DNA of 64,000 nucleotides. Origin: Streptomyces halobius (GTDB lineage Bacteria; Actinomycetota; Actinomycetes; Streptomycetales; Streptomycetaceae). The stretch is taken from positions 4,526,001 to 4,590,000 of the forward strand of contig NZ_CP086322.1 in assembly GCF_023277745.1 (NCBI RefSeq), written 5' to 3'. Below the pieces are notes generated by a model. That model was not told the origin of the DNA. It saw nothing but the letters and a program-made list of their open reading frames with translations, and did not search any database. The translations under genes were made by a program, and so were the position numbers. Shown piece after piece: positions 33,503 to 57,996 of this stretch; position 1 is the stretch's first letter, and every line of letters begins with the position of its first letter.

Positions 33503-36500
33503 TCAGCGTCCGCGCCGCGTGCGGTCGACGATCTGCCGCAGGGCGTCGAGGAGTCCCTCCGCAAGGTGCGCGACGGTGGCCGTGCGGTGGCTGCCGGGCG
33601 AGTGGATCCAGTCGATCCGCAACTCGCCCTCGCTCACTGCCGCCACCACATCGATCAGATGCGGCCGGGCCTGCTCCGGCGCCTGGCCCCGGCCCAGACC
33701 CTCCAGCCGGCCCCGGATGAGCCCGTCCTCGCTGGTGGTGCCGTCCCACTGCCCCAGGTAGTTGAAGCTCACCCGCGGCTGATCCTGGACGGCCAGCGCC
33801 CGGCCGGTACCGTCAGGCCCGGACAGATGGCGCAGCGCGCCGTAGCCCAGACCGCGGCCCGGCAGCTTGCGCAGCTTGCCCTTGACGGATTTCAGCGCAC
33901 GAGCCCAGTCGCCCTCGGGAACGTCCAGGGTCACGGGGTAGATGGTGGTGAACCAACCCACGGTACGGGACAGATCGACATCGTCGAACAGCTCCTCGCG
34001 GCCGTGGCCCTCCAGCGCGATGGTCACCGGACCGCCCGCCCAGTCACCCAGCACCCGGCCCAGCGCCGCCAGCAGCACGTCGTTGATCTGGGTGCGGAAG
34101 ACGGCCGGCACCTGGTGCAGCAGCGCCTCGGTCTCCTCCCGGCCCAGTTGCACGGAGACGATCTCGGTGGCGCCGTACGTATTGGGCTCCGCCCCGTCGA
34201 GCGGGATCTCCCGGGACCCGTCCACGCCCTGCCAGTAAGCGAGTTCACCCTCCAGGGCACCCGAGCGGACGTGGTCGGCCAGGCGCTTCGCCCACAGCTG
34301 GTAGCTGGAGGTCTTGGCGCCCAGATCCACCGTACGGCCCTCGGCCAGCTGCCCGTACGCCGTGGCCAGGTCCTCCAGCACCACGCGCCAGGAGACACCG
34401 TCCATGACGATGTGGTGCACGGCCAGGAAGAGCCGGGGCGTGCCGCCGTCGCTCTCCGGGCGCAGGTAGACGCCCTTGACCAGTGCGCCGGAGGTCAGGT
34501 CCAGCGCGTTCTGGGCGGCGGCCGCGGCCTCCTCGGCCTCGACCGACTCCCGCACGGCCAGCAGGGCATCGGCGCTCGCCGGGCCCTCGCCGTACTCCTG
34601 CACCCACTGCTCGCCCTCGCGGCGGTAGCGCATCCGCAGCGCGTCGTGGTGCGCGACCACCGCGGACAGGGCGCGGCCGAGCAGTTCGGCGTCGGTGCCC
34701 GGCGCCAGCTCGACGTGGACCGACATCGCGTAGTGGTCCGGGTTGTCGGCGTGCCCGTCGAAGAACCAACGCTGGATCGGGGTGAGTTCCACCTCACCGG
34801 TCACCGCACCGCCGCCGTCCCCGGCACCGCGCTCCGCGTCCCACTCCACCGCACCGGCCAGGGCCGCCACCGTCTGATGGGTGAACATCAGCTTGGAGGT
34901 GAGCCGGAGCCCGGCCTGACGGGCCCGGGAGACGGCCTGGATGGACAGGATCGAGTCGCCGCCCAGCTCGAAGAAGTTGTCGTGCACGCCGACCCGCTCC
35001 ACACCGAGCACCTCGGCCCACACCGCCGCAAGGGCTTCCTCGGCCGGGCTGCCCGGCGCGACGTACGCACCGTCGAGCTGGTCCGTCTGCACCTCGGGCT
35101 CGGGCAGTGAGCGGCGGTCCACCTTGCCGCTGGGGGTCAGCGGCAGCTTCTCGAGCGGGACGAAGACCGCCGGGATCATGTAGTCCGGCAGCGTCTCGCC
35201 GAGGCAGGAACGCAGCTCGGTGGTCGCGAGGTCCTGGGTGGACACCAGGTAGGCGACCAGACGGCGGTGCCCGTCGGCGCCCTGATGAGCCACCACAACC
35301 GCCTCGGCGACCTGCTCATGAGCGGTCAGCGCCGTCTCGATCTCACCCAGCTCGATCCGGAAACCACGAATCTTGACCTGATCGTCGGCGCGCCCCAGGT
35401 ACTCCAGCGTGCCATCCGCCCGCCAACGCGCCACATCGCCCGAGCGGTACATCCGCTCGCCGGGCGCACCGAACGGGTTCGCCGGGAAACGCTCCTCGGT
35501 CAGCTCCGGACGGTGCAGATACCCGCGCGCCAGACCACCACCCGCGACATACATCTCCCCGGGGACGCCGACCGGTACCGGCTTGCCGCGCTCGTCCAGC
35601 AGATAGACGCGGTAGCTGGGCAGCGGGCGGCCCGCCGGCACCCGGCCCGAGGCCACATGCCCAGCCGTAACCTCCTGGAACGTCACATGCACCGTGGTCT
35701 CGGTGATCCCGTACATATTGATCAGACGGGTGTCCCCCGAGCCGAACCGGTCGTACCAGGTCCGCAGGTGCTTGGGTTCCAACGCCTCGCCACCGAAGAT
35801 CACCCACCGCATGTCCGGCAGCGCCGGGACCTCGCCACCCGCGGCGGTCTCCACCAGCTCGCGGAACATCGAGGGCGTCTGGTTGAGCACCGTGACCCGC
35901 TCGGCGCGCAGCAGCTCCCACATCGCCTCGGGGTTACGGGCCACATCGTGCGGGACGACCACGACCCGGCCCCCGGTGGTCAGACCACCCCACATCTCCC
36001 AGACGGAGAAGTCGAAGGCGTAGGAGTGGAAGACCGTCCACACATCCTGCGGGCCGAAGCCATACGCAGGCTGACAGTTGGCAAGCAGGTTGAGCACGGT
36101 GTGGTGCTCGACGGCGACGCCCTTGGGGGAGCCGGTCGAACCGGACGTGTAGATGACATACGCCAGGTTGTCCCCGGTGACGGCCACCTCGGGCGCGGTA
36201 TCCGGCAGCTGCGCGATGCGCTCCCGCTCCCGGTCCAGGTCAATGACGGTCACACCCTCCGCCGGCAGCCCATCCTGCAGGCCCCGGTGCGTAACCAGCA
36301 TTCGAGCCCCGGAGTCCTGAAGCATGTACGCCAGCCGGTCCGCCGGATACGCCGGGTCCAGCGGCACATACGCCGCCCCCGCCTTCATGATCCCCAGCAG
36401 CCCGACCACCATCTCGGTGCTCCGCTCCACCGACAGACCGACCAGCGCATCCGGAGCGGCACCCCACACCCGCAGATGGTTGGCGAGTTGGTTGGCCCGC

Positions 36501-56652: not shown

Positions 56653-57996
56653 CTAGCGGGCCGCGGACCGCTCGCGCCGGGCCGAACGCCCGGCGAGCTG
56701 CATCAGCGCGGCCTCACCGGTGCCGCCGTCCAGGACGAACCGCCCGGTGTAGGGGGCCTCGTCGGCGTCGGTGCGGCGAGCGGTGAACAGCAGCCCGTCG
56801 GGGCCGTGCAGAGTCATAGCGGCGACGAGTCCGGTACGGTCGGTCAGCCGCAGCCCGCCCTCGTGGCGGGCGACGGTGAAGCGCGTGTCACCGTTGAGGT
56901 AGTCGCCCAACAGCCGTTCCAGGTCCGCCTGTTGGCCCGACCGTGCGTCCGGGACGGGGTGCTGGTGGTCGGCGACGTCGATACCGGCTTTCCGCAGCTC
57001 CTCGACGATCCGCGGCCACAGGAGTGTGCCCGTGGTGGCATTGGCCGTCAGCGCGACGGCCACCCGCCGACCGGGGTGGAAGCGCAGGTGGGCGGTGCCG
57101 CCGTCCACCGTGCCGTCATGACCCAGCCACCCGCCGTCCGCACCGCCGTAGCGGGCCAGGCCCAGCGCCCAGCCGTCCGCCATGCCGAAGGCGTCGGCGG
57201 CCGGCACCGGTGTGTGCATCTCGGCACGGACGTCCTCGTCCAGCAGATCGGCTGCCGACGGCGCGTCGCCGAAGTGCAGCCGGGCGAGGGCGACCAGGTC
57301 CTCGGCGCTGCCGCCGAGACCGCTGGCCGGGGCCCAGGTGGGCGGCAGGAAGACATCGACCGGGCGCGCGCCGCCCCGCTCCAGCCGGACGGCGTGCCCG
57401 GTGGCCACGGCGCGCGACGCGGCGGGACCGTGCAGGAAGTACGGGTCGATGCCCAGCGGCCGCAGCAGGAAGCTCTCCACCGCCGACTGCCAGCTCATGT
57501 CCGTGACCGCCTCGATGACGCGGCCGAGGAGGTTGTAGCCGGTGTTGGAGTACGAGAAGACCTCGCCGGGCCGATGCAGCAGCCCGGCGGCCGCCACGGC
57601 GGCCGCGTAGCGCCGCAGCGAGCGCTCGTCGACGTCGTCGAGTTCGTGGTCGGCCAGGAGCCCGCCGGTGTGGCTCAGCAGCTGCCGTACGGTGACCGCG
57701 GCCATGTCCGCGTCCGCGGGGCTGGTGAATTCCGGCAGGAATGCGGCCACCGTGTCGTCGAGTTCCACATCGCCGTCGGACACCAGCTGCATCACCACGG
57801 TCGCGGTGAATGCCTTGCTCACCGAGCCATAGGGAAAGGCGGTGCCGGTGTCCACCGCATCGCCGGCTCCGATCCGCTGAACTCCCGTGGCCAGCGAAAG
57901 GGTTTCCCCTTCGGTGTACACAGCGAGTTGGGCTCCTGGAACACCGGTTTCCGCGGCGAGTTCCCGCAGCCGGTCCCCCACATACTGCACTTCCAT
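56653..57996 (-). CDS. penicillin-binding-protein-type thioesterase (SurE-like peptide cyclase)
   Basis: The 447-residue product has a class C beta-lactamase/PBP fold: nucleophile SVSK in FPYGSVSKAF (SxxK), YSN in FSYSNTGYN (YxN), and GHDGT as the third motif. A C-terminal lipocalin-like domain of ~100 residues follows. This architecture and its position next to an NRPS ending in E match the stand-alone PBP-type thioesterases of surugamide, desotamide and related pathways. Those take the peptide from the last carrier domain and cyclise it head to tail, with a D-residue at the C-terminus. It probably releases the product here. A D-peptidase or resistance role is less likely. ATG 57996 has GGGAAGG very close; 58032 is an alternative. 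Confidence 0.85.
   Translation of the reverse strand: MEVQYVGDRLRELAAETGVPGAQLAVYTEGETLSLATGVQRIGAGDAVDTGTAFPYGSVSKAFTATVVMQLVSDGDVELDDTVAAFLPEFTSPADADMAAVTVRQLLSHTGGLLADHELDDVDERSLRRYAAAVAAAGLLHRPGEVFSYSNTGYNLLGRVIEAVTDMSWQSAVESFLLRPLGIDPYFLHGPAASRAVATGHAVRLERGGARPVDVFLPPTWAPASGLGGSAEDLVALARLHFGDAPSAADLLDEDVRAEMHTPVPAADAFGMADGWALGLARYGGADGGWLGHDGTVDGGTAHLRFHPGRRVAVALTANATTGTLLWPRIVEELRKAGIDVADHQHPVPDARSGQQADLERLLGDYLNGDTRFTVARHEGGLRLTDRTGLVAAMTLHGPDGLLFTARRTDADEAPYTGRFVLDGGTGEAALMQLAGRSARRERSAAR

What the first reader, a model, noticed from the sequence alone, without database searches (positions are those of the whole stretch)
33503..57996. Predicted cyclic hexapeptide with strictly alternating L/D residues, released by a stand-alone PBP-type cyclase
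Domain order gives six modules over two NRPSs with E domains in modules 2, 4 and 6. The two C domains that follow an internal E are of DCL type and the others of LCL type, so the stereochemistry reading is self-consistent. No fused thioesterase exists. A SurE-like PBP-type thioesterase, a family known to need a C-terminal D-residue, is next door. Reading the codes gives cyclo(Phe, D-X, Val, D-basic, Thr, D-Thr). I do not recognise a described compound with this order. Alternating L/D rings are flat and can stack, which may matter for activity.
Basis: partly seen in the sequence, partly recalled or inferred. Interest (0 to 1): 0.85.

Follow-up and report, generated by a model that had tools for sequence, protein, structure and literature searches.

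The report
Known cyclic hexapeptide (cyclofaulknamycin) gene cluster

Summary
Two minus-strand NRPSs form six modules with epimerase domains in modules 2, 4 and 6, DCL-type C domains after the two internal epimerases, no fused thioesterase, and a SurE-like PBP-type cyclase next door. The novelty claim is not. Domain order, gene content and A-domain codes match the cyclofaulknamycin (flk) cluster of Streptomyces albus J1074 (PMC8399532), whose ring holds L-threo-beta-phenylserine, D-Leu, L-Val, D-capreomycidine, L-Thr and D-allo-Thr. Codes A1 and A4 are identical to the published ones; A2, A3, A5 and A6 differ at one or two positions within the same substrate class. Identity to the J1074 proteins was not measured. 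The P450 lies beside the hydroxylase in 8 of 9 relatives where this could be read and is the likely Phe beta-hydroxylase, a step not assigned in the text I read. A half condensation domain opens the first NRPS here and, judging by alignment, in 27 of 27 homologues aligned; the published domain order does not mention it. Published antimicrobial tests were negative.

The parts
56653..57996 (-). Stand-alone PBP-type peptide cyclase (FlkO counterpart)
   Evidence: Pfam Beta-lactamase 201 bits; 6ksu 343 bits and Ulm16 253 bits; SVSK, YSN and HDG motifs
46263..56480 (-). NRPS A (FlkP counterpart): half-C, A1-T1, C2-A2-T2-E2, C3-A3-T3; predicted Phe, D-Leu, Val
   Evidence: homologues of similar length 74-88% identical over the A2 region
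55806..56480 (-). Half C domain at the start of NRPS A (first lobe and HHxxxDG site absent)
   Evidence: aligned in 27 of 27 homologues used, median identity 52%; end approximate
53976..55748 (-). Module 1 A1-T1, code DAWTVAAVCK (Phe)
   Evidence: domain ends approximate
49506..53963 (-). Module 2 C(LCL)-A-T-E, code DGMLVGAICK (Leu predicted from flk A2)
   Evidence: domain ends approximate
46281..49493 (-). Module 3 C(DCL)-A-T, code DAFWIGGTFK (Val)
   Evidence: domain ends approximate
45940..46146 (-). MbtH-like protein (FlkR counterpart)
   Evidence: Pfam MbtH 91 bits
33503..45874 (-). NRPS B (FlkS counterpart): C-A4-T-E, C-A5-T, C-A6-T-E; predicted D-capreomycidine, Thr, D-allo-Thr
32381..33361 (-). 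Fe(II)/2-oxoglutarate hydroxylase of the VioC/CmnC type (FlkT counterpart)
   Evidence: Pfam TauD; 6daw 213 bits, CmnC 205 bits, L-arginine beta-hydroxylase 2wbq 204 bits
30988..32226 (-). MFS exporter (FlkU counterpart)
   Evidence: Pfam MFS_1
29796..30977 (-). OxyD-like cytochrome P450, proposed beta-hydroxylase of carrier-bound Phe
   Evidence: 3mgx 513 bits, next best chain 239; conserved beside the hydroxylase
28837..29689 (-). HTH regulator at the FlkW position; its two parts lie in different frames in this genome
28011..28742 (-). Type II thioesterase (FlkX counterpart)
   Evidence: Pfam Thioesterase 144 bits
58346..60419 (-). Histidine kinase and LuxR-type response regulator (probable FlkN/FlkM counterparts)
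   Evidence: found upstream of the cyclase in 9 of 9 related loci
60570..63310 (-). ABC transporter permease (FtsX-like) and ATPase (probable FlkK/FlkL counterparts)
   Evidence: found in 9 of 9 related loci

Best explanation
The region is a member of the flk/fau cluster family and makes cyclofaulknamycin or a very close congener. NRPS A loads Phe and extends with Leu (epimerised to D) and Val. [quoted passage not shown] The OxyD-like P450 hydroxylates the beta carbon of carrier-bound Phe to give L-threo-beta-phenylserine. The stand-alone PBP-type cyclase takes the hexapeptide from the last carrier protein and joins the L-amino end to the D-allo-Thr end. Shown here: domain order, codes, gene content and conservation. 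Inferred: the residues, the P450 step, capreomycidine rather than another arginine derivative, and that the cluster is expressed.
For: Domain order equals the published FlkP/FlkS order. Codes are identical at A1 and A4 and differ at one or two positions at A2, A3, A5 and A6, in the same substrate classes. Homologues P0281, P0299 and P0302 have exactly the three published FlkP codes. Shared gene content: PBP cyclase, NRPS, MbtH between the NRPSs, NRPS, VioC homologue, MFS, type II thioesterase, two-component pair, ABC transporter, and no PLP aminotransferase among the ORFs scanned. The residues phenylserine, Leu, Val, capreomycidine, Thr, Thr sum to C34H53N9O9, the published formula. OhmL, reported with 57% similarity to OxyD, is a Phe beta-hydroxylase by gene deletion (PMC6920865). 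FlkO accepts D-allo-Thr, D-Thr and D-Ala at the C-terminus (PMC11735501).
Against: I had no sequence labelled as the S. albus J1074 flk cluster, so membership is judged by published codes, domain order and gene content. A2 ends IC here and VV in flk. No PLP enzyme for capreomycidine was recognised in the cluster (also true of flk), and I did not search the rest of the genome for one. The paper lists flkV as a putative sugar transporter, whereas the next gene after the exporter here is a P450. One of nine readable relatives (G054) has the hydroxylase but no close P450. The published linear companion reads Thr-phenylserine-Leu-Val-capreomycidine-Thr, which is the same ring order but cut between the two Thr, not the hydrolysis product expected from the module order. 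The regulator at the flkW position is split here, so expression is uncertain.
Confidence: 0.93

Rival explanations
1. A congener of cyclofaulknamycin: same ring, but one residue different, for example another bulky residue at position 2, or beta-hydroxy-Arg instead of capreomycidine. (This lies inside the best explanation's 'very close congener' and is not exclusive with it.)
For: A2 code ends IC, not VV. No capreomycidine synthase was recognised among the ORFs scanned. Congeners exist in the family: 3 of 7 NRPS B homologues have a different A5 code (P0199, P0205, P0208).
Against: A1 and A4 codes are identical to flk, and flk also lacks a clustered PLP enzyme yet makes capreomycidine. P0244 with DGMLVGAVCK bridges the window's A2 code and the DGMLVGAVVK form.
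Confidence: 0.25
2. The basic residue is 3-hydroxy-lysine, as in biffamycin, whose VioC-like enzyme BifN hydroxylates Lys.
For: BifN is 41% identical to VioC and acts on free Lys (PMC13285481).
Against: A4 code DLAESGAVDK is identical to that of flk A4, which loads capreomycidine. The motif LRIDADF keeps both Asp residues found at the matching place in the arginine hydroxylase 2wbq; their role in binding guanidine is recalled, and 6daw, the top hit, has only the first of them. In bif the cyclase is fused and each NRPS has two modules.
Confidence: 0.04
3. A truly undescribed alternating L/D hexapeptide.
For: Four of six codes are not letter-identical to flk.
Against: The differences are conservative and most occur in other homologues of the set; the rest of the architecture matches a characterised cluster.
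Confidence: 0.02

Closest known systems
Cyclofaulknamycin (flk) cluster, Streptomyces albus J1074, PMC8399532
   Same: Domain order of both NRPSs, substrate classes at all six positions, MbtH between the NRPSs, PBP cyclase, VioC homologue, MFS exporter, type II thioesterase, two-component and ABC genes, no clustered PLP aminotransferase recognised
   Different: Codes differ at one or two positions in A2, A3, A5, A6; the gene after the exporter is a P450 here while the paper lists flkV as a sugar transporter; no sugar transporter or methyltransferase among the ORFs that I scanned (only part of the ORFs around the cluster were scanned)
Faulknamycin (fau) cluster, Tryon et al. 2020 (seen only as cited in PMC8399532)
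   Same: Said there to be very similar to flk, with the same predicted amino acids
   Different: Faulknamycin reported with D-threo-phenylserine and the cyclic form not detected, according to PMC8399532; not examined here
Mannopeptimycin cluster (MppK cyclase)
   Same: Cyclic hexapeptide; FlkO is a homologue of MppK (PMC8399532)
   Different: Different residues and a mannosylated product (recalled)
Biffamycin A cluster, PMC13285481
   Same: VioC-like hydroxylase, SurE-type cyclisation
   Different: Tetrapeptide; cyclase fused to the NRPS; Lys rather than Arg is hydroxylated
Surugamide cyclase SurE (6ksu, name recalled) and ulleungmycin cyclase Ulm16 (8fek)
   Same: Stand-alone PBP-type cyclase with SxxK, YSN and HDG motifs
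   Different: Other peptides; 6ksu has a Gly where this protein and 7 of its 9 relatives have Ser, at the alignment position I take as SurE G235

Membership tests
flk/fau (cyclofaulknamycin) cluster | NRPS order A-T-C-A-T-E-C-A-T and C-A-T-E-C-A-T-C-A-T-E | tested here: met
   an extra half-C precedes A1
flk/fau (cyclofaulknamycin) cluster | Codes for Phe, Leu, Val, Arg-type, Thr, Thr in this order | tested here: met
   A1 and A4 identical; A2, A3, A5, A6 one or two positions different
flk/fau (cyclofaulknamycin) cluster | VioC homologue without clustered PLP aminotransferase | tested here: met
   not every ORF of the region was scanned
flk/fau (cyclofaulknamycin) cluster | Stand-alone MppK/SurE-type cyclase | tested here: met
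flk/fau (cyclofaulknamycin) cluster | Methyl- and mannosyltransferase genes flkG and flkH | tested here: inconclusive
   A group 1/group 4 glycosyltransferase starts at 63402 and runs past the window end; no methyltransferase among the five ORFs scanned there; relation to flkH not tested
flk/fau (cyclofaulknamycin) cluster | Sequence identity to the J1074 proteins | not tested
   No record labelled J1074 flk was retrieved; homologues P0281, P0299, P0302 carry the three published FlkP codes
flk/fau (cyclofaulknamycin) cluster | Produces the 731.4 Da cyclic peptide | not testable with these tools
   Needs culture and LC-MS
PBP-type thioesterase (SurE family) | SxxK, YSN and HDG active-site motifs in a PF00144 protein | tested here: met
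   YSN reads YAN in one of the nine relatives, L010
OxyD-type P450 (amino acid beta-hydroxylase on a carrier protein) | Closest sequence relation to 3mgx (recalled as OxyD) and intact heme motif | tested here: met
   513 bits against 239 for the next chain; heme motif FGNGPHHCLG
OxyD-type P450 (amino acid beta-hydroxylase on a carrier protein) | Hydroxylates carrier-bound Phe | not testable with these tools
   Inference from OhmL

The most novel reading that the evidence does not exclude
The half condensation domain kept at the start of NRPS A is not a dead remnant but a working platform that positions Phe-loaded T1 for the OxyD-like P450, much as the X domain does for Oxy enzymes in glycopeptide assembly (the X-domain comparison is recalled). 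A half-C would then be a second kind of P450 docking element.
Probability: 0.08. Interest if true: 0.5.

Novelty: already known. Interest (0 to 1): 0.15.

Why it matters
It closes the lead: the predicted peptide has been isolated, its residues assigned and its cyclase studied in vitro. What is left is small but usable. A P450 conserved beside the arginine hydroxylase is a clear candidate for the Phe beta-hydroxylation. NRPS A homologues occur in many Streptomyces and Kitasatospora records, and some NRPS B homologues have another code at position 5, so the family offers natural congeners.

Tried and rejected
Considered and rejected: (1) 3-hydroxy-Lys at position 4 by analogy with biffamycin, because the A4 code equals that of flk. 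(2) Identifying the product through Streptomyces sp. MWW064 (= NBRC 110611), the closest named relative: passages of its genome paper (PMC5073741) hold no 'hexapeptide' and list a not completely sequenced entry 'X-X-X-X-X, Cys', so it gave nothing. (3) A first hand reading of the A4 code as DLAEIVAVDK (used as a search term): the alignment shows that the register was wrong; the code is DLAESGAVDK. (4) Searching papers by code strings listed five papers, not the flk paper: one term was the wrong A4 string, and the flk table prints its codes letter by letter. (5) Searching mannopeptimycin with 'condensation domain' and 'truncated' gave one review; its passages do not describe a truncated C domain. 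This is the only search I made for a printed mention of the half-C domain. (6) Searching cyclofaulknamycin with P450 gave four papers. I saw the P450 passages of PMC11735501 (about other compounds) and the cyclofaulknamycin passages of PMC10745817; none of these passages assigns the step. The other two I saw only as listings. The supplement of PMC8399532 (Table S1) could not be read, so a P450 may be named there.

Not done: structure prediction, a search of the whole genome for a capreomycidine synthase, a direct alignment with J1074 proteins, a Pfam scan of NRPS A.

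Full report
Observation. The two NRPS genes lie on the minus strand at 46263-56480 and 33503-45874, with an MbtH gene between them. A motif scan gives the order half-C-A-T / C(LCL)-A-T-E / C(DCL)-A-T for the first and C(LCL)-A-T-E / C(DCL)-A-T / C(LCL)-A-T-E for the second (the T core of module 3 was read by eye). Epimerases therefore sit in modules 2, 4 and 6, and the DCL-type C domains follow exactly the two internal ones. 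No thioesterase domain ends the second NRPS. The PBP-type protein at 56653-57996 is most like 6ksu (recalled as SurE) and Ulm16 among solved structures and has the three active-site motifs.

What it is. The codes, read by alignment of the A domains, are DAWTVAAVCK, DGMLVGAICK, DAFWIGGTFK, DLAESGAVDK, DFWNIGMVHK and DFWNIGMVHK. The cyclofaulknamycin paper (PMC8399532; abstract, sections 3.1, 3.2, 3.6, 3.7 and found passages including Table 3) gives for flk: DAWTVAAVCK, DGMLVGAVVK, DAFWLGGTFK, DLAESGAVDK, DFWSVGMVHK and DFWSVGMVHK, predicted as Phe, Leu, Val, Arg/Orn/Lys, Thr and Thr. Its domain order for FlkP and FlkS is the one found here. Its gene list also fits: FlkO cyclase, FlkR MbtH between the NRPSs, FlkT VioC homologue, FlkU MFS exporter, FlkX type II thioesterase, two-component pairs and ABC transporters, and no PLP aminotransferase in the cluster. 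The product was isolated as a 731.4 Da compound, C34H53N9O9, together with a linear form of 749.4 Da. [quoted passage not shown] These residues sum to the published formula of the ring. The linear form is printed as Thr-phenylserine-Leu-Val-capreomycidine-Thr: the same ring order, but opened between the two Thr, which is not the product that simple hydrolysis from the last module would give. I cannot explain that from the sequence.

Relatives. The cyclase has nine relatives at 57-93% identity in named actinomycete records, the closest in Streptomyces sp. NBRC 110611 (a tenth hit at 32% from an Idiomarina bin is left out). All nine have homologues of the ABC and two-component genes upstream. 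Of the 120 listed hits for the A2 region (2015 in all) I kept the 29 of 3000-3500 aa, one of which is the window's own protein: all 29 have codes of the form DAWT(V/I)AAVCK, DGML(V/A/I)GA(V/I)(V/C)K and DA(F/Y/L)W(I/V/L)GGTFK. From 120 listed hits of 1408 for the A4 region, seven NRPS B homologues of 4050-4200 aa all have A4 DLAESGAVDK, and three of the seven have a different A5 code. In a sample of 392 genomes of the same genus, 7 including the window's own carry the hydroxylase at E of 1e-100 or better.

The gene at 32381-33361 is a VioC/CmnC-type hydroxylase. The gene at 29796-30977 is a P450 with 513 bits to 3mgx against 239 for the next chain; that 3mgx is OxyD is recalled. I searched 14 genome handles with each of the two proteins; they were chosen because they carry the cyclase or the hydroxylase, and four pairs have identical coordinates, so I count 10 distinct genomes. 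In 8 of the 10 a P450 of at least 73% identity lies on the same contig as the hydroxylase, 1.3 to 4.4 kb away. In one (G054) there is none nearby, only a 36% match about 40 kb off. In one (G098/G396) the contig ends inside the exporter gene and nothing can be said. OhmL, which its paper gives as 57% similar to OxyD, is a Phe beta-hydroxylase by gene deletion (PMC6920865, abstract and passages). I therefore propose that this P450 makes the beta-phenylserine. The words P450 and cytochrome do not occur in the main text of PMC8399532, but its supplement was not available to me.

Half condensation domain. NRPS A starts with about 225 residues that match the second half of a C domain and lack the HHxxxDG site. 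Of the 28 proteins of 3300-3500 aa used (27 homologues and the window's own), all align over this segment. Annotated starts vary: the first A3 motif lies at residue 403-408 in 19 of 27 homologues, 390-400 in four and 415-455 in four (404 in the window). None leaves room for a full C domain, which puts that motif near residue 653 in NRPS B. I checked the missing HHxxxDG site in the window's protein only. Median identity of the segment to the window is 52% (n = 27), against 65-78% for the nine other domains (n = 23 or 27; for four of them four homologues fell under the coverage limit). It is retained but changes faster. A remnant with a loose structural role is the plain reading; a P450 docking role is an untested idea.

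How it works. Shown: domains, codes, gene content, conservation. Inferred: Phe is loaded by module 1 and hydroxylated on its carrier by the P450; Leu, Val, capreomycidine and two Thr are added with epimerisation at positions 2, 4 and 6; the PBP-type enzyme joins the L-amino end to D-allo-Thr. The review PMC11735501 (passages) reports that FlkO was characterised in vitro, needed 40 mol% enzyme for 55% conversion, and accepts only small C-terminal residues (D-Ala, D-Thr, D-allo-Thr), in line with bulkier residues in its pocket. At the position I take as SurE G235 (assuming a 20-residue tag in the 6ksu chain, recalled) this protein and 7 of 9 relatives have Ser, two have Gly. That fits a smaller pocket but is weak evidence.

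Verdict. A sound prediction of a compound that is already described. Interest is low for the finding as given; the P450 assignment and the half-C domain are minor additions.

Noticed in passing
window 16127-24870 (-): A separate small cluster: alpha/beta hydrolase, stand-alone A domain, PCP, two acyl-CoA-dehydrogenase-like proteins (one best matched by prolyl-ACP dehydrogenase 4irn), flavin reductase, aspartate decarboxylase, SDR, a PhyH enzyme best matched by leucine hydroxylase 5nch, and a zinc ADH. It suggests Leu converted to a methylproline that is loaded and oxidised on a carrier (inference).
   Followed up: partly
window 28837-29689 (-): An HTH regulator between the P450 and the type II thioesterase has its N- and C-terminal parts in different reading frames, while two relatives (L051, L052) have both parts in one frame. 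Real frameshift or assembly error not settled.
   Followed up: partly
P0199, P0205, P0208 (NRPS B homologues): A5 codes DVWEFGLIQK or DVWDLGLIQK instead of the Thr code: natural congeners with another residue at position 5.
   Followed up: no
PMC8399532 compared with the module order: The published linear companion of the ring starts with Thr and ends with Thr before phenylserine's neighbour, that is, it is opened between the two Thr rather than between D-allo-Thr and phenylserine. Unexplained.
   Followed up: no
L050:5316-6644 (genome just beyond the window): An erythromycin-esterase family gene lies about 5 kb beyond the ABC genes; L050 also holds several ORFs that look transposase-like from their start sequences (not scanned).
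   Followed up: no
window 11047-13083 (-): A protein with tetratricopeptide-repeat and NB-ARC matches.
   Followed up: no
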